The translations under genes were made by a program, and so were the position numbers. 64,000 bases of DNA from Xanthomonas sp. NCPPB 1128 (GTDB lineage Bacteria; Pseudomonadota; Gammaproteobacteria; Xanthomonadales; Xanthomonadaceae), in assembly GCF_001043115.1 (NCBI RefSeq), contig NZ_LFME01000022.1, positions 23,219-87,218 on the forward strand, in the 5' to 3' direction. Of this stretch, positions 5,205 through 62,695 are shown one piece after another. Every line of letters begins with the position of its first letter. The stretch's first letter is position 1. The notes beneath the pieces were generated by a model, which made no database searches, was not told the origin of the DNA, and saw only the letters and a program-made list of their open reading frames with translations.

Positions 5205-8196
<2,992 letters not shown>

Positions 8197-44942: not shown

Positions 44943-45000
44943 GCCTAAACTGCGTTAAGCCAAGGAGTGGATCAACATCGGCTTGAACCGCTTGCTAGGG
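44943..45000 (-). repeat. Degenerate attC, distal end of the array
   Basis: Begins GCCTAAA and ends GCTAGGG, with an interior GTTAAGCC facing GGCTTGAA. The stop TAG of the gene at 44995-45516 lies inside the site, as usual for cassettes. Confidence 0.65.
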
Positions 45001-45516
45001 AGAAGCCTGGTCATAGTTGACCGTGACCATGTAGTACGTCACGCCCTCATGCGTCAAGGCGTTGAATGAACTAAAGACGAACGTGCCAACCGGTTGTGAG
45101 ACTGGGGCCATTTGAGCCTTGCCACCATGGGCAACGACGGCTTCGGCAGACGCCGCGAGCGCTTCCAGCGTTTCGCCAGAAAGGTCAGGCGTTTCCAGCG
45201 GGCCGTGTAGTGTCTTCAAGGTGGTGTGTGTCTGTGCCCAGACGCGAGTGGCCTTGGAAAGATCGGTTCCTTCATACACGCGGAGGGCGACTCGCCAGAG
45301 GTGGCCTTCCTTGAGGTAGAACTGGGCGTTCTGACGCGTCCCGCCAAAGTCGGCGTTGTAAGTCTCCAGATCGCCATTGGAGAATTCGCGATATGGACCG
45401 TTACTTTCGACTGCTCGAATTTCTTCCGCCGACATGCCGAAGCGCCACGGGCCAAAACCCGCGGCATCAGCCGAAAAAGCCGCGAACAACAATAACGCAG
45501 GTATCAAAAATCTCAT
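44995..45516 (-). CDS. Cassette gene: exported protein of unknown function
   Basis: A 173-residue protein with a signal peptide (MRFLIPALLLFAAFSADA) followed by GFGPWRFGMSAEEIRAVESN and later WRVALRVYEGTDLSKATRVW. The opening resembles periplasmic proteins whose 'GPWRFGMS..EI' segment binds to envelope partners, but no family is sure. The stop falls inside the attC. Confidence 0.7.
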   Translation of the reverse strand: MRFLIPALLLFAAFSADAAGFGPWRFGMSAEEIRAVESNGPYREFSNGDLETYNADFGGTRQNAQFYLKEGHLWRVALRVYEGTDLSKATRVWAQTHTTLKTLHGPLETPDLSGETLEALAASAEAVVAHGGKAQMAPVSQPVGTFVFSSFNALTHEGVTYYMVTVNYDQASP

Positions 45517-45520
45517 TTAT

Positions 45521-45581
45521 TTCCCCCTGGTGAAAAGACAGAGCCCGGCCGAAGTGACTTCGGCCCAAGCAACTGTTGGCC
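45521..45581 (-). repeat. Degenerate attC
   Basis: Ends GTTGGCC (45575-45581), with the interior GGCCGAAGTGACTTCGGCC keeping the central stem. The outer left core is worn, so the left edge is approximate. Confidence 0.6.
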
Positions 45582-45586
45582 GCTGT

Positions 45587-46114
45587 TCAATTCATGCGAT
45601 GAACCCAGCCAGTCCTCAGAATGGCGATGAGGATCATGCCTGCAACAAGCCCCGTCAAGGAGTGTTCCATCAGCGCGTACTGCCTGAATCACGTCCGGCC
45701 GCGAAGTGAGCCCGGCCTGGACAAGTCGCCAGGGCCTACTCCACACGATTGGTGCGTTGCGATCGAAACAACAACGCCGGTCATCACGGCTGCGAGTCCC
45801 GACCTCGCGTTGAAACAAAGCAGCACGACGCCGGGGACGACGCCGATGACTGCGGCCGTGGCATATGACGCACGTCCAGCTCGCAAGAGCAAGGCATATG
45901 CAGGCGCGGCGAAGATGACCAGGACCGGAAGCGCCACAACGAGTCCGTAAAACACGACGACTCCGGAGATGGTCAGTAGCAGCAGCCAGTCCGTTCGCGG
46001 CCAGGTCGAGACGGTACCCCACACCACGAATCCTGCGAACCAAACGAGAGCGCAGGCAACCAGTGCGATGAGACTCGCGAGAAGGACATCACTGAAACCG
46101 CGAACTCGCTTCAT
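45587..46114 (-). pseudogene. Cassette gene for a membrane protein, with in-frame TGA
   Basis: The open part (46114 to 45689) encodes 141 residues with about four helices: MKRVRGFSDVLLASLIALVA, SGVVVFYGLVVALPVLVIFA and ATAAVIGVVPGVVLLCF. After the TGA at 45689-45691 the same frame continues for 33 codons as a plausible last helix (MEHSLTGLVAGMILIAIL) and stops at 45587, six bases before the attC. The stop next to attC shows that the longer frame is ancestral. A CGA-to-TGA change would explain it. Confidence 0.65.
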
Positions 46115-46431
46115 CTGTGCCCTGATCTTTGAATTAAACCGCGAAGGGGCGTGAAGGAGGGGCGGGCCGGGAAGTGACGAAGCACGGGCCAGGCGTCGTA
46201 GCACGCCGCCGAGAGCCGAGCATGCCACATATCCCAGCGTCGATGCGCAAGGAGGTTGCTGGTTGCCGGACGGACCCGAAGTGTAGGCAACGAGCAGACC
46301 GGAGCAACGACGCTGGTGGACAAGGCAGCCGGCGATCCGATGGTGGATAAGGGAAGCTCCGTCCCGGAGCAGCACCTCGAAGCACCACGCGGCTTGCCGA
46401 TCACGGACGCCGCGACGCACGCTGAGGCCTG
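46115..46431. other. Cassette leader, no gene seen
   Basis: These 317 bp lie between the attC at 46432 and the start of the next cassette gene. Reading frames here lack family features, so a decayed gene or long untranslated leader is possible. Confidence 0.4.
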
Positions 46432-46480
46432 GCCCTAAGCCGCCACACGAAGCGGCTTCGGCCTGGATATGCTGTCAGAT
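46432..46480 (-). repeat. Degenerate attC
   Basis: Begins GCCCTAAG and ends GTCAGAT, with the interior ACGAAGCGGCTTCGGCC. It follows the stop of the gene at 46487 by 6 bases. Confidence 0.65.
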
Positions 46481-46486
46481 GGGCGC

Positions 46487-46855
46487 CTATAGCCAGTCGT
46501 GGGAGATCGCCATGGATGCAACAAAGAACGAGAGCAGCGCGCCCGCGAGCGATAGTGCATGGACGATGCCTAGCCAGCGGCGCCGCAGAGCCCACGTTGA
46601 GGGGACGAACAACGCCAGGGTCAACAACAGACTGAAGAGCGGAAGGTAATCGACTAGCGTCCAGTTCTCCACGTGCGGCAGGCCAGCAGCCAAGCAGCAG
46701 GCGGCGAAACCGGCCAAGGCAAACAGGCATGGAGCGCAGGCAATGACTCTGCGACCCGGTGACGCCGCTAGCGCAAGAACAATAAGTGCCACCGTGAGCG
46801 GAAAGATCCCGAGAAGCCCTTGCTCCGCTGTAAAGAACGAATAGCGCCAGTCCAC
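46487..46855 (-). CDS. Cassette gene: four-helix membrane protein
   Basis: A 122-residue protein with helices at about 15-30, 37-56, 68-85 and 95-115. It starts MDWRYSFFTAEQGLLGIFPL. Function unknown. It is placed directly before its attC as expected for a cassette. Confidence 0.7.
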   Translation of the reverse strand: MDWRYSFFTAEQGLLGIFPLTVALIVLALAASPGRRVIACAPCLFALAGFAACCLAAGLPHVENWTLVDYLPLFSLLLTLALFVPSTWALRRRWLGIVHALSLAGALLSFFVASMAISHDWL

Positions 46856-46871
46856 GTCCTGTTCCTCTACG

Positions 46872-46924
46872 GCCTAAGTTCAGTCGCACTGCGAAGCGCC
46901 ATCGGATCGAATGAACGGTTGGGG
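46872..46924 (-). repeat. attC site
   Basis: GCCTAAG at 46872-46878 and GTTGGGG at 46918-46924 flank the interior CTGCGAAGCGCCATCGGATC. The stop of the gene at 46926 is two bases away. Confidence 0.75.
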
Positions 46925-46925
46925 A

Positions 46926-47264
46926 TCACTTCTTTGCGCTGCACACATCAGTGCCAGGCGGGAGGTCAAACATTTCCCCATAGTTGCACATATGGTCGCA
47001 ACCGCCTCCGATGTGATCCCACTCACCGCTGATTTGGCATATGAATTGGCAAGAGTCGGTCCTGTTGCAGCGCTTCGCAACAATGCGTGCGATGCATATC
47101 CGAGGCGAGTCCTCGCCGAACTTCGCAGCGTAGGCCTTGATATCGCAGACAGGTGGCTCCGCGAGATACGGATTGTCTGCCGCGGTCCGAACCGGCTTGT
47201 GAGCGGAGCAAGCAGCCAGCGCGAACAATGCAGATGCGAAAACTAATGTCGTGAACTGCCTCAT
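46926..47264 (-). CDS. Cassette gene: cysteine-rich lipoprotein
   Basis: A 112-residue protein with lipobox ALFALAAC at about 12-19 and eight further cysteines (VCDIKAY, RICIARI, KRCNRTDSCQFICQIS, GGCDHMCNYG, DVCSAKK). It is probably disulfide-rich and anchored in the envelope. Family not recognised. Only 17 bp separate its start from the stop of the upstream gene, without an attC between them. Confidence 0.7.
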   Translation of the reverse strand: MRQFTTLVFASALFALAACSAHKPVRTAADNPYLAEPPVCDIKAYAAKFGEDSPRICIARIVAKRCNRTDSCQFICQISGEWDHIGGGCDHMCNYGEMFDLPPGTDVCSAKK

Positions 47265-47281
47265 GGGGGCTTGTACCAAAT

Positions 47282-47596
47282 TTAGGGCGCGGCCCCGCGA
47301 AGAACCAGTGCGATGATGCTGATGGCCAGCAATCCGACTAGCGCTTGATGGACGCGGCAGTGCAGACGGATTGCAAGGTACTCCGGATCCGAAGAATCAT
47401 TGGAGGTGGGTATTTTCCATAAATGGAGGAGGTTAAGGGCAATCCCGAGAGGCGAGCCGCCGGAGCGAAAGCGCTCGAAGCCGGCGAGCTTTAACCGCTC
47501 TGAATCCAAGGCGTTGCGAATCCTCCTGGTCAGCAACCAATCGCTTGCCATGACGGCAGCGAAAAGCACCAGAGGCAAATAACTCATTAATGGCAT
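47282..47596 (-). CDS. Cassette gene: two-helix membrane protein
   Basis: A 104-residue protein with helices at about 4-20 and 84-101, and SGGSPLGIALNLLHLW in between. Its stop lies beside a TTTAGGGC, a likely remnant of an attC outer core that has been lost, so it now shares one cassette with the lipoprotein gene. Start could also be the ATG 9 bases downstream. Confidence 0.65.
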   Translation of the reverse strand: MPLMSYLPLVLFAAVMASDWLLTRRIRNALDSERLKLAGFERFRSGGSPLGIALNLLHLWKIPTSNDSSDPEYLAIRLHCRVHQALVGLLAISIIALVLRGAAP

Positions 47597-47665
47597 GACT
47601 TTCCCGAGAGGCCTTGCGTTGCTAGAGACTTCGAGTTTGGAGGAAGCATTCGCGACAGACTCGGC

Positions 47666-47713
47666 ACCTAAGCTGCGCTGCGAAGCGACGGCGGCTGGAA
47701 TGAACTGTTAGTA
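47666..47713 (-). repeat. attC site
   Basis: ACCTAAG (47666-47672) to GTTAGTA (47707-47713), with the interior GCGCTGCGAAGCGACGGCGG. It follows the OmpA-like gene by 16 bases. Confidence 0.75.
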
Positions 47714-47729
47714 GTCAGGGTAAAGCTCA

Positions 47730-48170
47730 TCACGGCTCAATGTCCACGTTTAGTTCGGCCCGCTGATTACGCCAGCTATCCACAGGCTTGCCCGCGATCG
47801 GACGCGTAGATCCGTATTCGGTTAGCGCAATGACGCATAGAGGATCTACACCAGCAGCAAGCAGGAACCTGTACAGAAACAGCGCCCGCCGTTGAGCCAG
47901 AGCGTGACATTCCTGGCCGGAGCACTCGGACTGATCCGTATGGCCCGCAATCTCGAACCTAACCGACGGGTAGCGCTTGATAAGATCGACAGAGCGATTC
48001 ACGTTGGCGATTTGATCCGCGTCGGTCACAGCCTCTTCGATCGTCTCACCCTTGAGAGGATGGCCGGATTTGAAAAAGACGCCATAGAGGTCGAGAGAGG
48101 AGCCAAGTGCCGTGGTCGAATGCCCTGCAAGCAGGGCCGCCAATGGCAGGAGGCAGATGAATCTGAGCAT
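47730..48170 (-). CDS. Cassette gene: OmpA-like domain protein
   Basis: A 146-residue protein with a signal peptide (MLRFICLLPLAALLAGHSTT) and a C-terminal OmpA/MotB-like domain: SVRFEIAGHTDQSECSGQEC, AQRRALFLYRFLLAAGVDP and LTEYGSTRPIAGKPVDSWRN then QRAELNVDI. Such domains bind peptidoglycan. An OmpA-like gene within an integron cassette is uncommon. ATG 48182 is an alternative start. Confidence 0.78.
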   Translation of the reverse strand: MLRFICLLPLAALLAGHSTTALGSSLDLYGVFFKSGHPLKGETIEEAVTDADQIANVNRSVDLIKRYPSVRFEIAGHTDQSECSGQECHALAQRRALFLYRFLLAAGVDPLCVIALTEYGSTRPIAGKPVDSWRNQRAELNVDIEP

Positions 48171-48184
48171 GGGGCCGATCACGT

Positions 48185-48230
48185 GAGTTAAGCTGCGCCG
48201 AGTCGTCGAGCGGGTTTTTACGTATCGTGA
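48185..48230 (-). repeat. Very worn attC candidate
   Basis: Sits where an attC is expected, just after the stop at 48240, and keeps GAGTTAAGCTGCGCCGAG on the left side. The right core is not conserved. Confidence 0.35.
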
Positions 48231-48239
48231 AAAGCAGAG

Positions 48240-48626
48240 CTACTTCGCTGTGCAGCCCGCACTTTGCTCGGTGCCGGCGCGAACGTAGTACGCCACATTG
48301 CCGGTTCGCTCGCTCTTGAATTTTAGGCGGCTGTGGTCCGGCGGCACGCTAAGGCGCACAGTGATCAGATCGCCTCGTGCGTTCACCGCGAGCAGGACCT
48401 GCCCGTTGGACTCCTTATACAGGACGGGCGCCATTACGGCAGAGGGCCGCCGGCTAAAGCCATAGCCTTCGGTAAAGAATTCGAGCGAGTCTTTCGGGGC
48501 GCCATCCGGGTCCTCGCAGAGCACCCAGGTGCTAACAAGGGGACTGGTGGGCGCTGTAGCCGCGAACGCGACGCCGCAACCCAACGCACAGCCGGAAAGG
48601 ATGGTAGAGAGCAGCAGATGTCTCAT
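48240..48626 (-). CDS. Cassette gene: exported protein of unknown function
   Basis: A 128-residue protein with a signal peptide (MRHLLLSTILSGCALGCGVA). The mature part contains WVLCEDPDGAPKDSLEFFTE and GNVAYYVRAGTEQSAGC, a pattern of small beta-sheet proteins. The upstream gene stops one base before its ATG (TAACATG), with no attC in between. Confidence 0.68.
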   Translation of the reverse strand: MRHLLLSTILSGCALGCGVAFAATAPTSPLVSTWVLCEDPDGAPKDSLEFFTEGYGFSRRPSAVMAPVLYKESNGQVLLAVNARGDLITVRLSVPPDHSRLKFKSERTGNVAYYVRAGTEQSAGCTAK

Positions 48627-48627
48627 G

Positions 48628-48981
48628 TTAACGCTCAACGCCAGAGTTACGCCCGGCCAGACGTGGCGGTTGGGGCGATCCGTCAGCCTTGCGGCCCGTG
48701 TTGAAGAACAATGTGTACACGAACGCGACTGGCCAGAGGAACAGGCAGGCTAAGAACCAACGCCAGCTGCCGGCAAGATGTGCGCGATACAGCCCCAGCA
48801 GCCACGTTGCGGTACCGCCACCAGCCAAGACAAAGGACATGATGATCTCATGCGGGTACATCTCATCTTCGCTGAGGCCCCAATCCATTGCGCGCTCCTG
48901 ACCAAGAAGCACAAGCACAGCCAAGTACGCAGTGAAGAACAAGAACATCAGAAGTGTCAGTTTCGGTATTCGGTTGGACAT
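48628..48981 (-). CDS. Cassette gene: membrane protein of unknown function
   Basis: A 117-residue protein with helices at about 8-27, 45-62 and 72-92. It ends with TAAC that runs straight into the ATG of the next gene, so the two are a coupled pair in one cassette. Start MSNRIPKL was preferred to an ATG 45 bases upstream inside the attC. Confidence 0.65.
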   Translation of the reverse strand: MSNRIPKLTLLMFLFFTAYLAVLVLLGQERAMDWGLSEDEMYPHEIIMSFVLAGGGTATWLLGLYRAHLAGSWRWFLACLFLWPVAFVYTLFFNTGRKADGSPQPPRLAGRNSGVER

Positions 48982-49030
48982 TGCGGTAAGGCCAAGCGTG
49001 TGCGTTATGTAGCGGGGCAGGGCCAATCTG

Positions 49031-49096
49031 ACCTAAGTGAATTACTGGGCGACAAGGGCGAACAGCTGGCAGCGCTGCCGGGGGGGGGCGTTGGCG
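49031..49096 (-). repeat. Degenerate attC
   Basis: ACCTAAG (49031-49037) to GTTGGCG (49090-49096), with an expanded interior that includes a run of nine Gs. Slightly longer than the others. Confidence 0.55.
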
Positions 49097-49114
49097 CGCT
49101 CGCATGGCCACTCT

Positions 49115-49600
49115 TCAGGTAGCGACGTAGTAGCCGGCCGCACGCAACCGCAAGACCATTCCACCCATCTCTTCATCTATCTCATGGCTTACGGTGATGT
49201 TGGCGCCGCGGCTGTCCGTGCCGTATTGAAGAGACAGCGCACCTTGCTCCAGGTGAACATGCTTTCTCCAGTGATTGCTTGGGACAAGGCGCGTCACCAC
49301 GCGCTCTGCGTTCGTGTTCGAAAATTCAACGGCGCCATGATCCATGAGAGCCTGGCAGGCTGGTTTGGCTGGGCCGTAACCCTGATGCAGGCAGTTCTTG
49401 GCGGAGATCGCAGTTTCGTTCTCGGTTTTGAAATTGCTACCCCAGTACGTGTGGAAAGCGAGCTCGTGGATCTCGCCCGCACTCACGGAAGCGACGAATT
49501 GCTTCACTGGTAAGCAGAGAGGATCTGGCTCGCCCGCAGTGGCGGTACCGTTAACAAGCATTGCGAGAAGCAGGTTGCCTGCAGCAATGGGAACTTTCAT
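49115..49600 (-). CDS. Cassette gene: exported protein of unknown function
   Basis: A 161-residue protein with a signal peptide (MKVPIAAGNLLLAMLVNGTA). It contains LCLPVKQFVASVSAGEIHEL, ISAKNCLHQGYGPAKPACQA and HLEQGALSLQYGTDSRG, with three mature cysteines. Family not recognised. It is followed by an attC. Confidence 0.7.
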   Translation of the reverse strand: MKVPIAAGNLLLAMLVNGTATAGEPDPLCLPVKQFVASVSAGEIHELAFHTYWGSNFKTENETAISAKNCLHQGYGPAKPACQALMDHGAVEFSNTNAERVVTRLVPSNHWRKHVHLEQGALSLQYGTDSRGANITVSHEIDEEMGGMVLRLRAAGYYVAT

Positions 49601-49612
49601 CTTCTATTGAAT

Positions 49613-49663
49613 ACCTATCAAGACGCGCCACCGAGAGGCGTCAGCTTGAATGTGTGGTCGGTC
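49613..49663 (-). repeat. Degenerate attC
   Basis: ACCTATC (49613-49619) to GTCGGTC (49657-49663), with the typical right-arm AGCTTGAATG kept. Confidence 0.55.
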
Positions 49664-49713
49664 GATGGTGCCAGAAGGTGGTGAAGCTTTGGCCGCACTC
49701 CCCAGCGCGGCCG

Positions 49714-50091
49714 TCAGGTATGCAGCATGCCACAGGTCGAGGCCTTGGGTCTTGGCTCCCCATCAGGGTATGCCATGGTCATGATGTCCTTGAAGGAGAG
49801 TCCATTCAACTCCTTACGACATGAGGCCAAGTCCGCTTGCCCACCCAGAATCTCTTTGATCAATGGCTGGCTGGCAGACGATTTCGAGGTGAGGCATCCC
49901 TTGCGTGATAGGACGATCAGCTCTGCCAGAGAGAATCGCATCCGATCTTCAGGGGAGAGCGATGCAACGACAGCCGCGTGACTGCGCTCGAACGCATCAT
50001 GAGACCCGCCAGCTATCCTTGGAGTAGTGCTGCAAGATGGACTAGCCATTGTAGTCATGGCAATCAACCCAAACGACGCGAATTTGTTCAT
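49714..50091 (-). CDS. Cassette gene: lipoprotein (DUF6694-like)
   Basis: A 125-residue protein with a lipobox-like TTMASPSC at about 13-20, then GGSHDAFERSHAAVVASLSP and DRMRFSLAELIVLSRKG. This 'SxxAFExSxxxVxxxLxxxxRxxFxxAL' arrangement recalls DUF6694 lipoproteins; the match is from memory and tentative. An ATG 24 bases upstream is less likely. Confidence 0.6.
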   Translation of the reverse strand: MNKFASFGLIAMTTMASPSCSTTPRIAGGSHDAFERSHAAVVASLSPEDRMRFSLAELIVLSRKGCLTSKSSASQPLIKEILGGQADLASCRKELNGLSFKDIMTMAYPDGEPRPKASTCGMLHT

Positions 50092-50263
50092 GGTTAAAGT
50101 GCGAAATCCCACCATTGAGTGTGCAACGCCAAGGAGCGCTGAAGGTTATCCCGTCCGGAATGGAAGTAGGGATGTCTGTGCCAGCGTCACGCATGCGATC
50201 AACGGCGCCACGGACGGCGCCATTCTAGTCGCAAATTAAAGGGGCGACATTGCAGTTCATGCA

Positions 50264-50323
50264 GCCCAAACCCTGCGCTAGGCCAAGTCGCGAGGCGTTG
50301 TCGGCTTGACTGGATTATTCGGT
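50264..50323 (-). repeat. Degenerate attC
   Basis: GCCCAAAC (50264-50271) to ATTCGGT (50317-50323), with the right-arm CGGCTTGACTGGAT. The stop TAA of the gene at 50315 is inside. Confidence 0.5.
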
Positions 50324-50761
50324 GACAAGCAGATCGCCCGGCACCATGATGGATCTGCCAAATACTACGCCGGAGACTTGGGTCGCTGCAGCCAGGGTGC
50401 GTAGCGACTCGGGCAGATCGGACAGGTGCAGTGGTGTCTTCGGGAGGCTTTGCAGTTCATATCCGCCCAAGGCTTGCCGAGCGATGCGATGGATGTCCGA
50501 CCAGTCGTAGGCAAAGACGCCGCGCTTGGAAAATGCAATGAAGTCGTCTGGCCGAGGAAGCGTGACGCGCAGTTCCACGCGTGACGTTTCCGGCAATGCC
50601 AGGATCAGCTCCTCGGCAGTCTCTAGTGAGGCGAGGGCTGTAGCCGGGATCGGTCCCTCACCCGCTGTCGTAAAAAGTGCGACGTGGCCGACGGCGTCAA
50701 TGGCAAGCCATGCGGCATCAACGCCTTGAAGATCGCAGGAAGTCAGCATGCCACCTAGCAT
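50315..50761 (-). CDS. Cassette gene: cytoplasmic protein of unknown function
   Basis: A 148-residue soluble protein: VDAAWLAIDAVGHVALFTTA, FIAFSKRGVFAYDWSDIHR and YELQSLPKTPLHLSDLPES. The 'AWLAIDxxGHVAxFTTAGxGPIP' opening is common among small proteins in proteobacterial islands and toxin-neighbour genes, but I have no family name for it. Confidence 0.65.
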   Translation of the reverse strand: MLGGMLTSCDLQGVDAAWLAIDAVGHVALFTTAGEGPIPATALASLETAEELILALPETSRVELRVTLPRPDDFIAFSKRGVFAYDWSDIHRIARQALGGYELQSLPKTPLHLSDLPESLRTLAAATQVSGVVFGRSIMVPGDLLVTE

Positions 50762-50896
50762 GAGAGTCGCGGGATGCTACGAAGCGGCGCCGGCTGGGGG
50801 AGTTGTTTCAGGATCGGCCGGCTGCCATGTCTCGGTAGGATCATGGTTCGAGCAATCTTGCGCCTTGAGTTGCAGCTTCATAGGTCCCTGATACAT

Positions 50897-50941
50897 GCCT
50901 GAGTCGCGCCATAACGCCGCATCGGGATGAGCGAGTCATGA
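50897..50941 (-). repeat. Degenerate attC
   Basis: GCCTGAG on the left and GTCATGA on the right (50935-50941) enclose CGCGCCATAACGCCGC. Short and worn. Confidence 0.45.
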
Positions 50942-51400
50942 TGCGTCATCGGGGAACAACGAAGCATAAGTTGGATCCGCGTACTCCCACTGGGTGTCGT
51001 GCTGGATAAGGTATGAGCGCACCGCCTGCAAATCGATGGTGGGTGGTATGTTGAGCGAGAAGTACTTGGAATTCGCGCCCTCATAGCTGCAACCGAGCGC
51101 TACCAGACCCCGGAGCACTTGGTCAGAGTGATTGCCAGGCGCAACGGGTGGATCCAGGATGATTCGTATAGTGCGATTACCGGACTTCGCCATCACCGCA
51201 TGGAACGTGGGCATGTCCTCTTGGGGATCAATGGGCGCAAAGACCGTGTCCTGCCAAGAGACGCCGTAAGCATAGAAGGGCGAGTTGTCCAGCTTATATC
51301 GGTCATCGCCGAGCGGAAAGGCCCAAAGCGTCTCAATCGTGACCCCGCCCTCACCGTCTGGGACACGAAACAACACCTTGGCAGTCGGATCAGTGCTCAT
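50936..51400 (-). CDS. Cassette gene: DUF4265 domain protein
   Basis: A 154-residue soluble protein with KVLFRVPDGEGGVTIETLWA, DDRYKLDNSPFYAYGVSWQD, AVMAKSGNRTIRIIL and LGCSYEGANSKYFSLNIPP, the DUF4265 pattern. Domain function is unknown, but it recurs in accessory regions. Start ATG 51400 lies four bases from the preceding attC. Confidence 0.8.
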   Translation of the reverse strand: MSTDPTAKVLFRVPDGEGGVTIETLWAFPLGDDRYKLDNSPFYAYGVSWQDTVFAPIDPQEDMPTFHAVMAKSGNRTIRIILDPPVAPGNHSDQVLRGLVALGCSYEGANSKYFSLNIPPTIDLQAVRSYLIQHDTQWEYADPTYASLFPDDAS

Positions 51401-51403
51401 GAG

Positions 51404-51463
51404 GCTTGACTCCTGGATTGAACCGGACCGGGAAGTGATTTCGGCTCGAATGCATCGTCAGAG
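51404..51463 (-). repeat. Degenerate attC
   Basis: Left core near GCTTGAC (51404-51410), right core GTCAGAG (51457-51463), interior GGGAAGTGATTTCGGCTCGA. Confidence 0.6.
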
Positions 51464-51472
51464 CGTCCATGG

Positions 51473-51808
51473 TTAGTCGAAACACATGCCAGCCACAACC
51501 GTTCCGGCCTTGACCTCGTTGTAGCAGCCATAGACATCGTGCGTATCTGCTTGGCATGTTCCACTGGCCTTGGCTCCAAGCTTGGCACCCGGTGACGCCT
51601 TGCACACCCCCTTGCATTCCCGGCTGTCCTGGCACTCCATTCCGCCATCCGAAAAGGGGACGACGCAGGCCGGCGTAGCGAACAGGCCGACGCCCTGTAT
51701 GCGTCCGCCCTGAGCTTTGCAGTGCGCTGCGTCAACCCTCGGTTGCGAGGCGCAGGACGTGCAGATCAAAATGACTGCGAGTAGCGTCAGAGGGTAGCGC
51801 CTCAACAT
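51473..51808 (-). CDS. Cassette gene: cysteine-rich lipoprotein
   Basis: A 111-residue protein with lipobox AVILICTSC at about 11-19 and about eight mature cysteines (AHCKAQGGRI, ATPACVVPF, MECQDSRECKGVCKASPG, GTCQADTHDVYGCYN, GMCFD). Probably disulfide-rich in the envelope. It resembles the other Cys-rich lipoprotein of the array in style only. Start 51808 follows from the signal; ATG 51835 is possible. Confidence 0.7.
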   Translation of the reverse strand: MLRRYPLTLLAVILICTSCASQPRVDAAHCKAQGGRIQGVGLFATPACVVPFSDGGMECQDSRECKGVCKASPGAKLGAKASGTCQADTHDVYGCYNEVKAGTVVAGMCFD

Positions 51809-51836
51809 GGCTTTCGCTGTCGTGATGTCTGCCATT

Positions 51837-51898
51837 GGCGCTCAATCCTTATGTGGTCCTCGCCCCAAAGCGGCGCCGTCTCGATTAGCTTGTTGGGC
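51837..51898 (-). repeat. attC site
   Basis: Right core GTTGGGC (51892-51898) is intact; the left core is GCGCTCAAT-like. The interior contains AAAGCGGCGCCGTC. Confidence 0.65.
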
Positions 51899-52315
51899 GC
51901 CAACCCGGCCACCATGCCACATGTCCAAGAGCGCATTTGCCGCCTGCGCAGGCATCACGCCGCTGTCATGGAGATGCCAGACGAGATGGATGGCCAGCAA
52001 CTGCAGGTAGCCATGCTGAACTGGGTCGAATCCTCGAGTATCGGCCGCGATATCCCAGGCAGCCATGCCGGAGAGGACGGAATCATCGGAACTGACATTG
52101 GGCTCAAAGGACACATTTGCAGCCGCACAAAGCAACTGGACTGCGAGTGTCGCGCTCGGGCTATCACTCACAATCTCCAAGATCGCGGTATCTGCAGAAA
52201 CGCGGGTTCTCAACACCTTGACGTCCATGACCAAGCCAAGCAAGCCGCGAACGTCACTGACAAGTTGATCGAATGGAGGCATGTGCTGCGGTAATCGGCG
52301 TTTGTTGGAGGGCAA
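51842..52315 (-). CDS. Cassette gene: soluble protein reading through its attC
   Basis: A 157-residue protein with an N-terminal PFDQLVSDVRGLLGLVMDVK, then LEIVSDSPSATLAVQLLCAA and QLLAIHLVWHLHDSGVMPAQ. The last 25 or so residues (from about GAQQANRDGAALGRG) are encoded by the attC itself and are probably not part of the ancestral protein. Family not recognised. Confidence 0.6.
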   Translation of the reverse strand: MPSNKRRLPQHMPPFDQLVSDVRGLLGLVMDVKVLRTRVSADTAILEIVSDSPSATLAVQLLCAAANVSFEPNVSSDDSVLSGMAAWDIAADTRGFDPVQHGYLQLLAIHLVWHLHDSGVMPAQAANALLDMWHGGRVGAQQANRDGAALGRGPHKD

Positions 52316-52367
52316 GCGTTAGCCTGTCGCGGCAAGTGGTGCGGAAGATTTGCATCGATTGTTAGGC
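52308..52367 (-). repeat. attC site
   Basis: Right core GTTAGGC (52361-52367) is perfect; left side is worn. The stop TAA of the gene at 52362 lies inside the core. Confidence 0.65.
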
Positions 52368-52730
52368 GTCCTTCGCCGGCGCTGAACCAGGCCCGGCGTC
52401 CAAACCCGATGGATCCGATCCAAGCAGGTCCTCAAAAAGCATGGCCGCGTCATCTGGTTTGATCCCTGGATCCGCCATTTTATAGAGCGTGTCGAATACG
52501 GCCTCATAGGATGCCATGCGATAAAGGAGGGACAGGTCGCGTCTCGATGCTCCCAAAGAAAGCAATCGTTCCAGGGCAGGGCCGACGTCCCCGAATGGAC
52601 CATTGGGATGATTCTGCGATGTATTAATTGAATTATCGATCCAGGATTCCTGCATCGACGAATTGATGATTTCGCTCCACAGTAAATCTAGGAATTCTTC
52701 GCGGCTTGAGTACTCTTCAGAATCATCCAT
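52362..52730 (-). CDS. Cassette gene: acidic soluble protein of unknown function
   Basis: A 122-residue acidic helical protein: MDDSEEYSSREEFLDLLWSE, ALERLLSLGASRRDLSLLYR and DDAAMLFEDLLGSDPSG. No signal peptide. The helical 'LERLLxLGAxxxDLxxLxRxxxYxxxFxxLY' run is reminiscent of small immunity-like proteins, but this is only an impression. Confidence 0.65.
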   Translation of the reverse strand: MDDSEEYSSREEFLDLLWSEIINSSMQESWIDNSINTSQNHPNGPFGDVGPALERLLSLGASRRDLSLLYRMASYEAVFDTLYKMADPGIKPDDAAMLFEDLLGSDPSGLDAGPGSAPAKDA

Positions 52731-52767
52731 GTTGTAGTGGTCTCATACGCCTAGGATTGAACTTCGT

Positions 52768-52827
52768 ATCTAACGCCTCAGTCATGCCGCGCCGCGAAGC
52801 GGCTTTGGCTCGAATGAATTGTTGGGC
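52768..52827 (-). repeat. Canonical attC site
   Basis: ATCTAAC (52768-52774) and GTTGGGC (52821-52827) both fit RYYYAAC/GTTRRRY. Interior stem GCCGCGCCGCGAAGCGGC. 60 bp. Confidence 0.88.
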
Positions 52828-52843
52828 TGTTTGCCGGTACAGC

Positions 52844-53122
52844 TCACTTGCCACTCCTGACCTGCTGCAGCCCTTTCCGTGCAGCCTTGTAGCAAAGCAA
52901 GCAAATAAGTAGCGCAAAGGCTGACATGACCAGCGACAAGAGGAAATAGTTGGCATGGCCAATGACGTTACCGCCGCGATCATGGACAGGGAGCACGCTA
53001 AGGCCATGGCGATAGAGAACGTAGCCAGGAAATGCGGCTGTTCCAATCATAAACACGAGCGAGCCGATACGTTGGAGCAGTAGAAGAAAGACCCAAGTGT
53101 CGCGTGCAGTTTTTTCTGTCAT
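52844..53122 (-). CDS. Cassette gene: two-helix membrane protein
   Basis: A 92-residue protein with helices at about 10-35 and 58-78 (MSAFALLICLLCYKAARKG). Start MTEKTARDTW is 26 bp from the preceding attC; an in-frame ATG within that attC was rejected. Function unknown. Confidence 0.7.
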   Translation of the reverse strand: MTEKTARDTWVFLLLLQRIGSLVFMIGTAAFPGYVLYRHGLSVLPVHDRGGNVIGHANYFLLSLVMSAFALLICLLCYKAARKGLQQVRSGK

Positions 53123-53148
53123 TGAGTGGCCTTGGTGGCTCTTGAGCA

Positions 53149-53208
53149 GCCTAACGTCTGAATTGAGCCGAGCTGCGAAGCGGCTTCGCATTGAACGACT
53201 TGTTAGGT
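53149..53208 (-). repeat. Canonical attC site
   Basis: GCCTAAC (53149-53155) and GTTAGGT (53202-53208), interior GAGCCGAGCTGCGAAGCGGC. 60 bp, the best-preserved site. The stop of the next gene is two bases away. Confidence 0.9.
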
Positions 53209-53209
53209 G

Positions 53210-53584
53210 TCAATGCATCACCAGCTTATGCCAATAAGGCGCGAACGGAGGCTTGGGGAAGACCAGTCCCAGATACGTTACTCGCCAGCATTGAGAGCGC
53301 GCATTCTCTCGATCGGTGTAATAGCCAGCTACCTTCCCAGTGGCGTCGATCTCCAGAACTTGAGTTAACTCACCTTGCGCCTTGAAGTAGCAGCCATCGC
53401 GCTCGTCGAGGTGCTGTGCGTTGTTGAAGGCGGCCCAGGCGTCAGCGTACTTCGAGGTTTCATCATGTCGACGCTTCCACTGCGCATCCGCGAGCGCATT
53501 GGCCTGGGCGAAATCAGAAGCGGACTGTGCCATTGCCGGTAGCGCGATGAACAGAAAGATTGAGGCTAAAAAGACTTTGATCAT
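53210..53584 (-). CDS. Cassette gene: exported protein of unknown function
   Basis: A 124-residue protein with a clear signal peptide (MIKVFLASIFLFIALPAMAQ). The mature part contains YADAWAAFNNAQHLDERDGC, LTQVLEIDATGKVAGYYTD and CWRVTYLGLVFPKPPFAPYW. The 'VLEIDATGKVxxxxxDxxNxxxxCWRxTYLGLxFPxPPFAPYxxxLxM' end is typical of a secreted protein family with a TonB-box-like strand, but I cannot name it. Confidence 0.75.
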   Translation of the reverse strand: MIKVFLASIFLFIALPAMAQSASDFAQANALADAQWKRRHDETSKYADAWAAFNNAQHLDERDGCYFKAQGELTQVLEIDATGKVAGYYTDRENARSQCWRVTYLGLVFPKPPFAPYWHKLVMH

Positions 53585-53591
53585 TCTTGAG

Positions 53592-53640
53592 TCCTAATGC
53601 TTTAATTAAGCCGGGTTGCGAATTGAATGAATTGTTAGGC
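53592..53640 (-). repeat. attC site with shortened centre
   Basis: TCCTAAT (53592-53598) to GTTAGGC (53634-53640). At 49 bp it lacks most of the central stem seen in its neighbours. Confidence 0.75.
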
Positions 53641-53708
53641 CACACTGCGGCCCAGCGTGGCTGTGGTCAGTTCTGTATTATCTCGACGTGTTCGGTTGTT
53701 TCCATATG
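53641..53708 (-). other. Mini-cassette with at most a 12-residue ORF
   Basis: Only 68 bp lie between two attC sites. On the cassette strand an ATG at 53705 opens a 12-codon frame (METTEHVEIIQN) that stops at 53667. It may be a gene-less cassette, a remnant, or carry a regulatory element. Confidence 0.6.
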
Positions 53709-53768
53709 TCCTAACATTTGAACTGAGCCGAGCCGCTAAGTGGCTCCGGCTTGATTTAACTGCTAGGC
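53709..53768 (-). repeat. attC site
   Basis: TCCTAAC (53709-53715) and GCTAGGC (53762-53768), interior GAGCCGAGCCGCTAAGTGGC. 60 bp. Confidence 0.82.
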
Positions 53769-53780
53769 CGGCAAGGGAGA

Positions 53781-53983
53781 TTAGCGGAGTATGGATTGAA
53801 TGTATGGTGATCTGGAGCCATCCCAGCCGCAGATGACGCAGTGCCCTGAAATGAATTCATGTGAGCACTTTGGAGGCGCCATATAAGACATGAGAGCACT
53901 CTGGACAGAGCAACGTCATACTTGAAGCCGTACACAACGTATTGGCCCCCGCATTCATCACATTTTGTCAAACTTCTGTCCAC
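53781..53983 (-). pseudogene. First cassette gene: zinc-ribbon protein broken over three frames
   Basis: On the minus strand the first frame gives TKCDECGGQYVVYGFKYDVA, the next LCPECSHVLYGA, and the third KCSHEFISGHCVICGWDG, followed by RSPYIQSILR and TAA at 53781. Each segment carries a Cys pair, and the segments follow each other without gaps, so a single protein of about 66 residues with two CxxC zinc knuckles plus a CxxC-like SH..GHCVIC element was present. Two separate single-base insertions explain the breaks. A GTG at 53983 is the apparent start. Confidence 0.7.
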
Positions 53984-53987
53984 TGCG

Positions 53988-53994
53988 ACCTAAC
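53988..53994 (-). other. attI-like core site at the head of the array
   Basis: The minus strand reads GTTAGGT immediately before the first cassette gene, and no matching inverse core lies within 70 bp on the ilvD side, so this is not a normal attC. The position is that of the integron attI recombination point. Confidence 0.55.
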
Positions 53995-54227
53995 TACTAT
54001 TGATTGCTTAAAAGCGATGATGCACCAGGTTTCTATACGCCTATGCGTGGGGCGTGGGACGTCTGGCATACGCAGTCAGCTAGATAGGCTGGGAGCGGCG
54101 CCAGTATCAAGAAGAGCAACCCAGTGCTAGGCGTTTGCGGTCACGCGTCGGGACTGAAGTCCCTCCCACAGTGCGATGCCAAAGCGCCATGGAGACCGTG
54201 GAGCCGCGCGGTCCCCATGACAACACC
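53995..54227. other. Gap between array head and ilvD, no integrase
   Basis: The 233 bp are too short for an integrase of about 320 residues, and no frame on either strand shows tyrosine-recombinase motifs. A GTCGGGACTGAAGTCCCTCC repeat lies at 54148-54167. Confidence 0.75.
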
Positions 54228-56066
54228 TCACCCATCCAGCATCGCCTTGTCCCGCACCGCCCCCTTGTCCGCACTCGTTGCCAGCAGCGCATACGCCTTC
54301 AACGCCGTACTGACCTTACGCGGGCGCACCTCCACCGGTTTCCAGCCCTGCGCGTCCTGCGCGGCGCGGCGCGTGGCCAATTCCGCGTCCGAGGCCAACA
54401 GGTCGATGCGGCGCTGAGGAATGTCGATACGAATGCGGTCGCCGTCGCGGACCAGGCCGATGGCGCCACCGGCGGCGGCTTCTGGCGAGGCGTGGCCGAT
54501 CGACAGGCCGGAGGTGCCGCCGGAGAAACGGCCGTCGGTGAGCAGGGCGCATTGCTTGCCCAGGCCCTTGGACTTCAGGTACGAGGTGGGGTAAAGCATT
54601 TCCTGCATGCCGGGGCCGCCCTTGGGGCCTTCGTAGCGGATCACCACCACGTCGCCCGCTTTCACTTCGTCGGCGAGGATGCCCTTGACCGCGGCGTCCT
54701 GGCTTTCGAACACCTTGGCGGTGCCCTCGAACACGTGGATGGACTCGTCCACGCCCGCGGTCTTCACCACGCAGCCGTCTTCGGCGATGTTGCCGTAGAG
54801 CACCGCCAGGCCGCCTTCCTGCGAGTAGGCGTGGGCGACGTCGCGGATGCAGCCGGTGGCGCGGTCGGCATCCAGGCTCGGCCAGCGCGTGGCCTGGCTG
54901 AAGGCGACCTGGGTGGGGATGCCGGCCGGCCCGGCCTGGTAGAAGGTCCGCACGGCGGGGTCGTCGCTCTGGGTGATGTCCCACTGCGCGATGGCCTCGG
55001 CCAGGCTGCGGCTGTGCACGGTGGCCTGGTCGGTATGCAGCAGGCCGCCGCGCGCCAGTTCGCCGAGAATGGCGACGATGCCGCCGGCGCGGTGTACGTC
55101 CTCGATGTGGTACTTCTGCGTGTTCGGCGCCACCTTGCACAGCTGCGGCACGCGCTTGGACAGGCGGTCGATGTCGCGCAGGGTGAACGGCACTTCGGCT
55201 TCCTGCGCGGCGGCGAGCAGGTGCAGGATGGTGTTGGTGGAGCCACCCATCGCGATGTCCAGGGTCATCGCGTTCTCGAACGCCTCGAAGGTGGCGATGC
55301 CGCGCGGCAACGCGCGCGGGTCTTCGGCGCCGTACCAGCGGTGGCACAGTTCCACCGCGGTGCGGCCGGCCTTGAGGAACAGTTGCTCGCGGTCGGCGTG
55401 GGTGGCGACCACGGTGCCGTTGCCGGGCAGGGCCAGGCCCAGCGCTTCGGTCAGGCAGTTCATCGAGTTGGCGGTGAACATGCCCGAGCAGGAGCCGCAG
55501 GTGGGGCAGGCGCTGCGCTCGAAGGCGGCGACCTTCTCGTCGGAGGCGGTGGGATCGGCGGCGATCACCATCGCGTCGATCAGGTCCAGGTTGTGGTCGG
55601 CGAGCTTGGTCTTGCCGGCTTCCATCGGCCCGCCGGAGACGAACACGGTGGGAATGTTGAGGCGCAGCGCGGCCATCAGCATGCCGGGGGTGATCTTGTC
55701 GCAGTTGGAGATGCACACCAGCGCGTCGGCACAGTGCGCGTTGACCATGTACTCGACCGAGTCGGCGATGATCTCGCGGCTGGGCAGCGAGTACAGCATG
55801 CCGTCGTGGCCCATGGCGATGCCGTCGTCCACGGCGATGGTGTCGAACTCCTTGGCCACGCCGCCGACGCGCTCGATCTCGCGTGCGACCAGCTGCCCGA
55901 GATCCTTCAGGTGCACGTGGCCGGGCACGAACTGGGTGAAGGAATTGGCGATGGCGATGATCGGCTTGTGGAAGTCGGCGTCCTGCATGCCGGTGGCGCG
56001 CCACAGCGCGCGGGCGCCGGCCATGTTGCGGCCGTGGGTGGAGGTCTTGGAGCGATAGTCGGGCAT
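54228..56066 (-). CDS. ilvD: Dihydroxy-acid dehydratase
   Basis: A 612-residue IlvD, which dehydrates dihydroxy-acids in branched-chain amino-acid synthesis. The iron-sulfur cysteines lie in [12 protein letters not shown] and [17 protein letters not shown], and the catalytic C-terminal region has [18 protein letters not shown]. The start [14 protein letters not shown] is the family's usual beginning. It is the known anchor gene of the Xanthomonas integron, which lies at its 3' side here. Its stop is 61 bp from the nearest palindromic repeat. Confidence 0.96.
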
Positions 56067-61099: not shown

Positions 61100-61200
61100 C
61101 GCGCGCGCAGCGCAGCCCGGCATGCGCGTTTCTGGCATGTTGCGGTTGCTGCGCGTTGCCGACATGGGAGTGGCTTCGGTCGCGAAGCACGATGGCGTGA

Positions 61201-61508: not shown

Positions 61509-61615
61509 CCATCACCCCAGCCTTGTTGTCGTCAGGAGCGGCTGGGGCGATGCAGCCGCCAGGTGCTGGCCATGCCGCGGGCGGCATGCCACCGCACTGC
61601 ATCGACAGCGTCGCG

Positions 61616-61907
61616 CTACAGCAACCCATCGCGCTTCACCGCCAGGTGGCGCTCGATCAGCGCGACGGGCAGGTCCTCGCCGGTGACGTCGAGCACCATC
61701 ACGCCGTGGCTGCGCAGCGTGTCGTGCGCGGCGCTGCGTTGCTGCAGGTAGCGCGCCACCGCGCCGGCCTGCACCGTCTACTGCAGGTCGCGTACATCTT
61801 CGCTCAGCGCCAGGTCCAGTTCGCGCTCAAGCAGGCTGGCCACGCACACCAGGTGGCGGCGCTGCAGCAGGCGCGGCGGTCAGCAGGTCCTCGATCGCCG
61901 AGTCGCT
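61616..61907 (-). pseudogene. Truncated duplicate of the DUF58 gene tail
   Basis: This stretch is nearly the same as 62696-62987, the last ~97 codons of the DUF58 gene, and ends with the same TAG. It has a premature TAG (in CTGCAGTAGACG on the coding strand), a 2-base deletion near 61875 and many substitutions. It lacks the first 335 codons and any start. Confidence 0.85.
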
Positions 61908-61938: not shown

Positions 61939-61999
61939 GCCTTGACGCCTGAACTAAGCCGCGCCGCAAAGCGACTTCGGCTTGAATGCATCGCTAGGC
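61939..61999 (-). repeat. Isolated attC site outside the main array
   Basis: GCCTTGAC on the left and GCTAGGC (61993-61999) on the right enclose ACTAAGCCGCGCCGCAAAGC and a GGCTTGAATGCATC right arm. Its interior aligns closely with the canonical array sites. Confidence 0.82.
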
Positions 62000-62000
62000 C

Positions 62001-62312
62001 TCAGCAGGCAAGCGTTGAAATTGCGTTGAGCTTCCATTTGTAAATCACCCAAAGAAGCGCCAAGGAAAATGCACAGAGAGCGCTAATCGCCTTGCTCAAG
62101 CGCGAATCCTCGCGCATTCCGATCAGGAGCTCAGTAACGCAGCCAGTCCCCAAGGTTACGGAGACCGGAAGAATCCACATAAAAATTGCCTGCCTCTCGA
62201 TGGAAGCGCAGTTGGGTACTTGGCCAACGTTCAGCGCAAAGAAGATCCCAGCTACGGCAAACGCCGTGACGGCGAGTTCTGTTAGAACGATAGGTAGGGA
62301 TTTGTCGCTCAT
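62001..62312 (-). CDS. Solitary cassette gene: three-helix membrane protein
   Basis: A 103-residue protein with helices at about 7-26, 46-66 and 79-96 (MSDKSLPIVLTELAVTAFAV at the start). Its stop lies one base before the attC, and a GTTAGGC core (minus strand, 62321-62327) is 8 bases before the ATG, so the whole unit has cassette boundaries. Function unknown. A longer frame to 62489 would cross the core and was rejected. Confidence 0.72.
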   Translation of the reverse strand: MSDKSLPIVLTELAVTAFAVAGIFFALNVGQVPNCASIERQAIFMWILPVSVTLGTGCVTELLIGMREDSRLSKAISALCAFSLALLWVIYKWKLNAISTLAC

Positions 62313-62320
62313 CACCTGAG

Positions 62321-62519
62321 GCCTAACTAACTCTTGGACCGCGTAAAAGCGGTGTTGCACCCAGTATCGACCAAGGCTGGAGGTCTGAGAAGAAGGAACT
62401 CCTACTCCGCAACTCATGACTTGCCGGATGGCACCGCGGAGCTCTGGCCTTGATACTGCCTGCGTTATTCGACGATTGAGCAGGCGCATGAGTTAAACCT
62501 GTGACGATGCAGGCCTAAC
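62321..62519 (-). other. Two core sites bordering a 185-bp segment upstream of the solitary cassette
   Basis: GCCTAAC occurs at 62321-62327 and again at 62513-62519. The segment between has no supported gene and no complete attC stem. It could be a second cassette whose attC has been lost or a decayed flank. Confidence 0.45.
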
Positions 62520-62695
62520 GGCTTACCTGGCCACCATGCTGCTGGGTCAGGTCCGTGACCGGCTGCGGCTTCGCCATTACAGCCTCCTTACCGAGCAGGC
62601 GTCTGTGCGCCGGAGATGGCGCTCATTCGGGCCAACCGTAAGCGGCATCCCGTGCAAAGGGGATCGGCAGCGACGCCATGGGCCGCAGCGTCGCG

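What the first reader, a model, noticed from the sequence alone, without database searches (positions are those of the whole stretch)
44943..53994. Integron cassette array beside ilvD, with at least sixteen cassettes of unknown small proteins
Small minus-strand genes alternate with 45-66 bp imperfect palindromes carrying RYYYAAC/GTTRRRY cores and a shared interior. Most genes stop in or just before such a site. The position next to ilvD matches what is known of xanthomonad chromosomal integrons. Nearly all products are exported, lipid-anchored or membrane proteins without known families, so the array is a pool of undescribed genes.
Basis: partly seen in the sequence, partly recalled or inferred. 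Interest (0 to 1): 0.85.

Follow-up and report, generated by a model that had tools for sequence, protein, structure and literature searches.

The report
Integron plus integrase-free satellite docking site
This chromosome (likely a Xanthomonas) carries, next to ilvD, a row of gene cassettes whose integron has lost its integrase gene, and 8 kb away a second, integrase-free predicted docking site with its own cassette; related species hold more such sites at other fixed places, likely stocked in the past by one integrase acting at a distance.

Summary
The array is real. An attC covariance model built only from relatives' sites finds 12 minus-strand sites in the window at E<=0.011: 11 within 44943-53768, one at 61939-61999. 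It is the ilvD chromosomal integron of xanthomonads, a known kind (PMC12444791), here without integrase; stubs of intI and attI remain at 54092-53988. attC sites decay away from ilvD and six ORFs show purifying selection. Its truncated junction recurs in 6 of 20 genus genomes, yet cassettes differ and homology stops at the attI crossover. Of 19 off-ilvD loci examined, 13 (13 of 16 relatives', 0 of 3 own) are headed by attI-like sites; 15 of 19 off-ilvD exact attI motifs precede attC sites; 61 of 88 orthologous pairs break within 15 bp of the crossover. Many Xanthomonas "CALINs" thus look like attI-headed satellite platforms, probably served by IntI in trans. Array: known. Satellite attI platforms: new variant of a known kind.

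The parts
54228..56066 (-). ilvD (dihydroxy-acid dehydratase), the conserved anchor gene
   Evidence: ORF; Pfam PF00920, PF24877; 92-99% identical in 19 genus genomes
54034..54092 (+). fossil of the intI 3' end (about the last 20 codons, frameshifted)
   Evidence: DNA homology to the intI 3' end of relatives (matches to 54032; alignment)
53988..54033 (-). fossil of the attI 3' end, ending in the crossover GTTAGGT (53994-53988)
   Evidence: GGTGCATCATCGCTTTTAAGCAATCAATAGTAGTTAGGT aligns to complete attI of relatives
44943..53993 (-). cassette array of the ilvD integron, estimated 16-19 cassettes, attC quality falling with distance from ilvD
   Evidence: bits against rank rho -0.72, p 0.013, n=11
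53709..53768 (-). attC 1
   Evidence: 47.0 bits, E 1e-10
53592..53640 (-). attC 2
   Evidence: 34.6 bits
53149..53208 (-). attC 3, best conserved
   Evidence: 63.8 bits, E 2e-15
52768..52827 (-). attC 4
   Evidence: 47.6 bits
51404..51463 (-). attC
   Evidence: 41.0 bits
50264..50323 (-). attC, eroded
   Evidence: 25.8 bits, E 7e-5
49613..49663 (-). attC, eroded
   Evidence: 17.9 bits, E 0.011
47665..47707 (-). attC, eroded
   Evidence: 20.9 bits
46872..46915 (-). attC, eroded
   Evidence: 21.0 bits
46427..46480 (-). attC, eroded
   Evidence: 21.6 bits
44943..45000 (-). most distal detectable attC
   Evidence: 24.3 bits, E 2e-4
53210..53584 (-). cassette ORF, 124 aa, signal-peptide-like N-terminus
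   Evidence: no Pfam or PADLOC match
52844..53122 (-). cassette ORF (start at ATG of MTEKTARDTW), membrane-like
   Evidence: weak DUF998 below cut-off
52362..52730 (-). cassette ORF, 122 aa; dN/dS 0.22-0.43 against G006, G007, G010
51473..51835 (-). cassette ORF, 120 aa, lipoprotein-like
50936..51400 (-). cassette ORF, 154 aa, DUF4265
   Evidence: PF14085 E 8e-30
50315..50761 (-). cassette ORF, 148 aa; dN/dS 0.18 against G003
47730..48170 (-). cassette ORF, 146 aa, OmpA domain; dN/dS 0.13-0.15 against G007, G008, G010
   Evidence: PF00691 E 6e-7
47282..47596 (-). cassette ORF, 104 aa; homologue lies in a satellite array (L161); dN/dS 0.21
45689..46114 (-). cassette ORF, 141 aa, membrane-like; dN/dS 0.28 against G018
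44995..45516 (-). cassette ORF, 173 aa, signal-peptide-like
62696..63994 (-). DUF58 gene, anchor of the second platform
   Evidence: PF01882 E 2e-28
62530..62640 (+). truncated intI 5' end (N-terminal codons only)
   Evidence: tblastn to G003 IntI residues 1-23; DNA alignment of the shared junction
62321..62600 (-). complete second attI; crossover GTTAGGC at 62327-62321
   Evidence: 90-92% identical to G007 and G010, 75-82% to most other attI copies found
61940..62326 (-). single cassette of the second platform (ORF 62001-62312, 103 aa, membrane-like; dN/dS 0.07-0.10)
61939..61999 (-). attC of the second platform
   Evidence: 50.5 bits, E 1e-11
61606..61906 (-). partial duplicate of the DUF58 3' end, flanking the second platform
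   Evidence: 90% identical to 62686-62988

Best explanation
The window holds an integrase-less remnant of the ilvD chromosomal integron (likely of a Xanthomonas) and, 8 kb away, a second attI site with a truncated intI and its own cassette, and both cassette sets were likely inserted by a full-length IntI, for the second site probably encoded elsewhere in the cell (in trans). Shown: attC sites; the intI and attI fossils; no IntI match in this genome; the DUF58::truncated-intI::attI junction shared by six species with different cassettes beyond it, and homology ending at the attI crossover; in relatives, near-identical cassettes shared between ilvD arrays and one attI-headed satellite (S1, L160). 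Inferred: recombination in trans by the ilvD IntI; age order (new cassettes enter at attI, so distal attC sites have drifted longest); later loss of intI by deletion, after which this array became a fixed gene cluster whose genes are, where testable, still kept by selection.
For: attC model without window sequences: 12 sites, 11 in the array. intI 3' end plus attI 3' end beside ilvD. No IntI in the genome: TIGR02249 best single match 73 bits against a cut-off of 265; five recombinases of the phage-integrase family, two presumed XerC/D and three phage-type (these names are my reading). Among 20 genus genomes 7 have a strong intI match, all 7 beside ilvD. Second attI with the same truncated junction in G000, G002, G007, G008, G010 and G018. 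G000, G007 and G010 share one cassette there; G002, G018 and G008 diverge from them and from each other within 7 bp of the crossover. Satellite heads: 13 of 16 relatives' loci, no reversed-control hit at the same thresholds. Exact attI 15-mer: 43 sites in 55 genomes, control 0; 15 of the 19 off-ilvD copies fetched precede attC sites. 61 of 88 orthologous pairs end within 15 bp of the crossover in both partners. Cassettes shared between ilvD arrays and satellite L160: G002 ilvD 4 = L160 7 (99% over 334 bp); G002 ilvD 12 = L160 13 (95%, 442 bp); G003 ilvD 11 = L160 10 (94%, 275 bp); G014 ilvD 18 = L160 1 (90%, 482 bp). Purifying selection: dN/dS 0.07-0.43 in all 11 gap-free, stop-free comparisons, covering six ORFs.
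Against: No recombination was assayed; 'in trans' is inference. 27 of 88 orthologous pairs do not end within 15 bp: 3 share the first cassette or more, 14 lie at one site (S4: L162, L166, L181, L192 with L197/L199), 9 involve L201, and one overshoots by 25 bp. Three of 16 relatives' satellites and all three minor attC loci of this genome show no attI head. A looser scan allowing indels gave 46 reversed-control hits at 8-10 edits, so weak heads need the stricter scan. Four of 19 off-ilvD attI copies have no attC downstream. The attI tree does not settle whether the DUF58 attIs are one clade (support 50/65). DUF58-platform cassettes match ilvD-array cassettes only at 75-76%. I chose satellites from the listed part, which favours strong attC sites.
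Confidence: 0.8

Rival explanations
1. Each satellite is simply a former complete integron that received its cassettes from its own intI before losing it; no action in trans was needed.
For: Some satellites retain intI 5' pieces: DUF58, and the secD site with intI cut near residue 82-84 or 35. [quoted passage not shown]
Against: At DUF58 the same intI truncation is shared by species whose cassettes differ, so cassettes changed after the truncation. The same holds at the secD site: L178, L184 and L190 share 1.6-1.7 kb through the truncated intI to the crossover. Sites S1 to S3 give no intI match by tblastn (S1 may keep the first dozen codons by the DNA alignment) and still differ at the crossover.
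Confidence: 0.15
2. The off-ilvD cassettes were inserted at non-specific genomic sites (attG type), without any attI.
For: attG insertion is described for other hosts (recalled; mentioned in the PMC12444791 text read). Three of 16 relatives' satellites and three minor loci here show no head.
Against: 13 of 16 relatives' satellites are headed by an attI-like site on the same strand; no reversed-control hit at those thresholds.
Confidence: 0.08
3. Cassette differences between orthologous satellites come from ordinary homologous recombination between arrays, not site-specific recombination.
For: The window's platform is flanked by a 300-bp DUF58 duplicate, which suggests a homologous-recombination import of the whole platform.
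Against: 61 of 88 pairs break within 15 bp of the crossover, most of these within 5 bp; homologous recombination is not expected to give such precision.
Confidence: 0.07
4. The ilvD array is a chance run of small genes with palindromes, not an integron.
For: Many distal sites are too eroded to be recognised one by one.
Against: attC model hits, intI and attI fossils, cassette mosaics in relatives.
Confidence: 0.01

Closest known systems
Xanthomonas chromosomal integron beside ilvD (Gillings 2005, recalled and as described in PMC12444791; Colombi 2025, PMC12444791)
   Same: Location downstream of ilvD, frequent intI inactivation, mostly unknown cassette genes, CALINs at conserved places elsewhere (it names secF/secD among others)
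   Different: intI is reduced here to a 3' stub fused to attI; the text read (parts 1-4 of 8, plus the attI and CALIN passages shown) does not mention attI at the off-ilvD CALINs
[quoted passage not shown]
   Same: attC array without intI; at least two attC
   Different: 13 of the 16 relatives' loci examined here are headed by their own attI-like site, and several sit at the same place in several species
deltaattI-type cassettes of mobile integrons (PMC12901181, abstract and outline seen)
   Same: attI sequences away from their usual place take part in IntI recombination
   Different: There the deltaattI is part of resistance cassettes studied with IntI1; here attI heads chromosomal arrays at fixed loci

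Membership tests
Xanthomonas ilvD chromosomal integron | array immediately downstream of ilvD | tested here: met
   ilvD ends at 54228, first cassette from 53994
Xanthomonas ilvD chromosomal integron | attC sites of the type found in relatives' ilvD arrays | tested here: met
   model from relatives only, 11 hits at E<=0.011
Xanthomonas ilvD chromosomal integron | attI | tested here: met
   only the last ~45 bp remain, 54033-53988
Xanthomonas ilvD chromosomal integron | intI gene | tested here: not met
   about 20 codons of the 3' end remain; no match over cut-off in the genome
CALIN | two or more attC sites, no intI | tested here: met
Second platform as a working integron | attI with crossover followed by cassette plus attC | tested here: met
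   62600-61939
Second platform as a working integron | own intI | tested here: not met
   tblastn shows residues 1-42 (G002), 1-37 (G018), 1-43 (G008), 1-23 (G010, G000) and none in G007; shared junction by DNA
Second platform as a working integron | recombination by IntI supplied in trans | not testable with these tools
   inferred from crossover-exact differences
attG-type out-of-integron insertion | cassette at a site without attI homology | tested here: not met
   DUF58 platform has a full attI; open for loci without a head

The most novel reading that the evidence does not exclude
Xanthomonas chromosomes carry an archipelago of attI docking sites (ilvD, DUF58, secD and at least three more), normally with at most one intact integrase; the integrase-free sites persist for long periods and are restocked in trans, so what has been filed as CALIN debris is a distributed, multi-site integron.
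Probability: 0.65. Interest if true: 0.78.

Novelty: new variant of a known kind. Interest (0 to 1): 0.62.

Why it matters
Integrons are pictured as one integrase, one attI, one array. If one IntI serves several dispersed attI sites, each perhaps with its own promoter (not tested), the cell has several first-cassette positions, so more cassettes can be expressed and kept at once, and a cassette can survive decay of the main locus. It would also explain why CALINs sit at the same places in different species, a point the genus-wide study (PMC12444791) attributes to ancestral integron activity. Because IntegronFinder does not look for attI outside class 1 (PMC9024848 passage), such heads may have been missed elsewhere. 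Where CALINs come from becomes directly testable.

Tried and rejected
Rfam scan of the window: no family at gathering score. Plasmid collection: no match. PADLOC on 20 ORFs (19 on the array side plus the second-platform ORF): one marginal MotB/ZorB hit (E 0.0034) to the OmpA-like ORF, taken as the shared OmpA fold, not defence. Pfam on 20 array-side ORFs: two above cut-off, DUF4265 and OmpA; none for the second-platform ORF. For a few ORFs the stretch I gave did not begin at the start codon. A first fuzzy search for the attI core skipped sites and had 46 control hits at 8-10 edits; it was replaced by a plain mismatch scan, which in turn misses the window's own ilvD fossil and G010's DUF58 attI because of indels. 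attI tree as a test of one origin for the DUF58 attIs: not decisive. I first took the S4 flank gene for a LamG protein by eye; Pfam gave no family for it, so the label is dropped. In the same call the secD-site flank (L190) is SecD and the S3 flank (L164) a family 35 glycosyl hydrolase; no family for the S1 and S2 flank ORFs tried. For the attC model I gave 44 of 46 distinct sites, leaving out two of 69 and 78 nt; the 46 came from 47 sites left after I dropped six likely spurious ones from 53 relatives' candidates. attC decay in the window: p 0.07 with the sequence-only model, p 0.013 (11 sites) and 0.02 (17 sites) with the covariance model; of 12 other arrays or parts with at least 8 sites 11 have negative rho, 6 of them at p<0.05 (G002, G003, G014, G016, G018, L161), G010 shows none. 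The pre-filtered count of 61 of 72 alignments was replaced by the unfiltered 61 of 88 pairs. dN/dS: 9 of 21 ORFs had a homologue in the fetched loci, 6 of them a clean comparison. Species: not named by any tool; Xanthomonas group 1 is inferred from ilvD (92% to named Xanthomonas) and genus-mates.
Full report
WHAT IS THERE. The window lies in an unnamed 4.95-Mb genome (G000, contig C22). ilvD occupies 54228-56066 on the minus strand. Reading from ilvD on the minus strand, about 230 bp follow, then small ORFs separated by attC-like sites down to 44943. I built a covariance model from 44 attC sites of relatives (none from the window). With filters off it finds 12 minus-strand sites in the 64 kb at E<=0.011: 11 between 44943 and 53768 and one at 61939-61999. 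Six weaker hits (E 0.39-9.6) lie at ends of array ORFs, but equally weak hits occur elsewhere in the window. Exact cores at both ends survive at only two sites of the array. Over the 11 supported array sites, score falls with distance from ilvD (rho -0.72, p 0.013; over 17 including weak ones rho -0.56, p 0.02). Arrays of several relatives fall too (G003 -0.80, G018 -0.89, G002 -0.65); G010 does not. This fits insertion at attI with ageing towards the far end (inference).

THE FOSSIL PLATFORM BESIDE ilvD. In relatives intI lies tail-to-tail with ilvD and attI follows. Seven of 20 genus genomes have a strong IntI match, all beside ilvD. By tblastn with G003's IntI, 14 relatives keep intI or pieces of it within 2.2 kb of ilvD; G003 itself is uninterrupted, G017 has a divergent near-complete frame (60%), and the rest range from one internal stop (G002) to N-terminal (G007, G009, G010) or C-terminal (G018) stubs. 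In the window about 59 bp of the intI 3' end (54092-54034) run straight into the last ~45 bp of attI (54033-53988), ending in GTTAGGT. The joint lies at TAGA, present at the matching place of relatives' intI and of G009's attI, so a short-homology deletion is possible (inference). No IntI match over cut-off exists in G000 (best single match 73 bits against 265).

CASSETTES MOVED. Against 19 relatives, window homology comes in cassette-sized blocks in changed order. The OmpA-like cassette 47669-48198 stands first to third after ilvD in G008, G007 and G010 but mid-array here; 52349-52827 recurs in G006, G007 and G010, keeping its downstream neighbour in G010 and partly in G007. Of 21 ORFs, 9 have a homologue in the fetched loci; the 11 comparisons without gaps or stops (6 ORFs) give dN/dS 0.07-0.43: OmpA-like 0.13-0.15, 122-aa ORF 0.22-0.43, 148-aa ORF 0.18, 104-aa ORF 0.21, 141-aa ORF 0.28, second-platform ORF 0.07-0.10. 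Against this, the 142-aa ORF's homologues carry a stop and gaps, the 173-aa ORF matches a copy with two stops, and the 161-aa ORF's only homologue is saturated. Pfam names two of 20 array-side ORFs above cut-off, DUF4265 and OmpA. Twelve of 18 array ORFs look exported or membrane by a crude count.

THE SECOND PLATFORM. At 62640-61939, downstream of a DUF58 gene (62696-63994), the minus strand carries the first codons of intI (antisense), a complete attI (crossover 62327-62321), one cassette (103-aa membrane-like ORF) and an attC. The DUF58 3' end is duplicated beyond it (61606-61906, 90%); the sequence after the duplicate resembles the unoccupied locus of G009, so import of the platform by recombination at DUF58 is likely (inference). 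The same DUF58-intI junction occurs in six of 20 genus genomes: G000, G002, G007, G010, G018 and, about 30 kb from ilvD, G008. G000, G007 and G010 share the first cassette at 93-95%. G002, G018 and G008 carry others, and homology between genomes with different cassettes stops within 7 bp of the crossover. Since one alignment runs unbroken from DUF58 through the truncated intI to the crossover (for example 1678 bp between window and G002), intI was already cut when the cassettes diverged, so they changed without a local integrase. By inspection the window's two attIs are of different types: the 45-bp ilvD fossil resembles attI of G008, G009, G011 and G016, the DUF58 one groups with G002, G003, G004 and G014.

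OTHER SATELLITES. The attC model finds sites in 17 of 20 genus genomes at E<=0.01. I fetched 16 relatives' off-ilvD loci chosen from the listed matches (one, L159, is G008's DUF58 site), plus three minor loci of G000. Thirteen of the 16 have an attI-like core on the same strand 280-675 bp before the first attC (two loci have a second head further in); none of the three own loci do; the reversed control over 0.9 Mb gives none at these thresholds. The heads fall in at least three sequence families, most ending in AATAGTAGTTAG. A second test used the exact 15-mer TCSAATAGTAGTTAG: 16 sites in 10 of 20 genus genomes and 27 in 19 of 35 genomes of a sister genus, controls 0. Contig lengths identify three of the latter genomes as X. 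melonis, X. phaseoli and X. populi. All 27 plus two new genus sites were fetched: 10 adjoin ilvD, 19 do not, and 15 of those 19 have attC downstream on the same strand. Eight off-ilvD loci carry intI cut near residue 82-84 (L178, L180, L184, L190, L201) or 35 (L185, L188, L203); L190 lies beside secD, a place where PMC12444791 reports CALINs, and L201 and L203 share its flank through 6.2-6.4 kb matches. Among 88 pairs sharing an upstream flank, 61 lose homology within 15 bp of the crossover in both partners; the 27 exceptions are 3 sharing the first cassette or more, 14 at site S4, 9 with L201 and one overshoot of 25 bp. Pairs are not independent; they represent about six sites. Four cassettes are shared between ilvD arrays and satellite L160 at 90-99%; other two-member cross-platform matches are 70-86%.

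HOW IT WORKS. Most likely IntI from ilvD recombined attC cassettes into any attI in the cell, including integrase-free copies. Loss of intI then froze the arrays. In this strain nothing should move them unless an IntI is supplied (prediction). How attI copies came to new places is unknown; segmental copying with a truncated intI fits DUF58 and the secD site.

KNOWN OR NEW. ilvD integrons, intI decay and CALINs at conserved places in about half of genomes are published (PMC12444791; text parts 1-4 of 8 and term passages read). That text speaks of attI only in general terms, in earlier PCR work and in methods, in the passages shown. IntegronFinder does not detect attI outside class 1 (passage in PMC9024848). 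Searches for a second, orphan or additional attI and for CALIN with attI (listings only) showed no title or abstract describing attI-headed satellites. The library lacks most subscription papers and all preprints, so this is not proof of novelty.

Noticed in passing
window 61939-62640: Second attI platform with a truncated intI, one cassette and attC, downstream of a DUF58 gene
   Followed up: yes
window 61606-61906 and 62686-62988: 300-bp partial duplicate of the DUF58 3' end flanking the second platform, suggesting import by recombination
   Followed up: partly
window 46442-44950; L156; many relatives: Recurrent ~345-bp cassette: a 22-member single-linkage cluster in the loci examined, five copies in G014's array; perhaps the 'empty' cassette mentioned in PMC12444791; function unknown
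   Followed up: partly
L181 (G239:C6): Broken intI pieces at site S4 rather than at ilvD
   Followed up: no
window 61165-61543 and about 54150-54180: Repeated GTGGGAGGGACTTCAGTCCCGACG-type elements near both platforms
   Followed up: no
G000 C2:113830-114315 and 151100-151585: Two phage-type integrases with identical scores, possibly a duplicated element
   Followed up: no
G005 L125, oriented 6915-7352 and 1138-1379: Two separate intI fragments in one ilvD region
   Followed up: no
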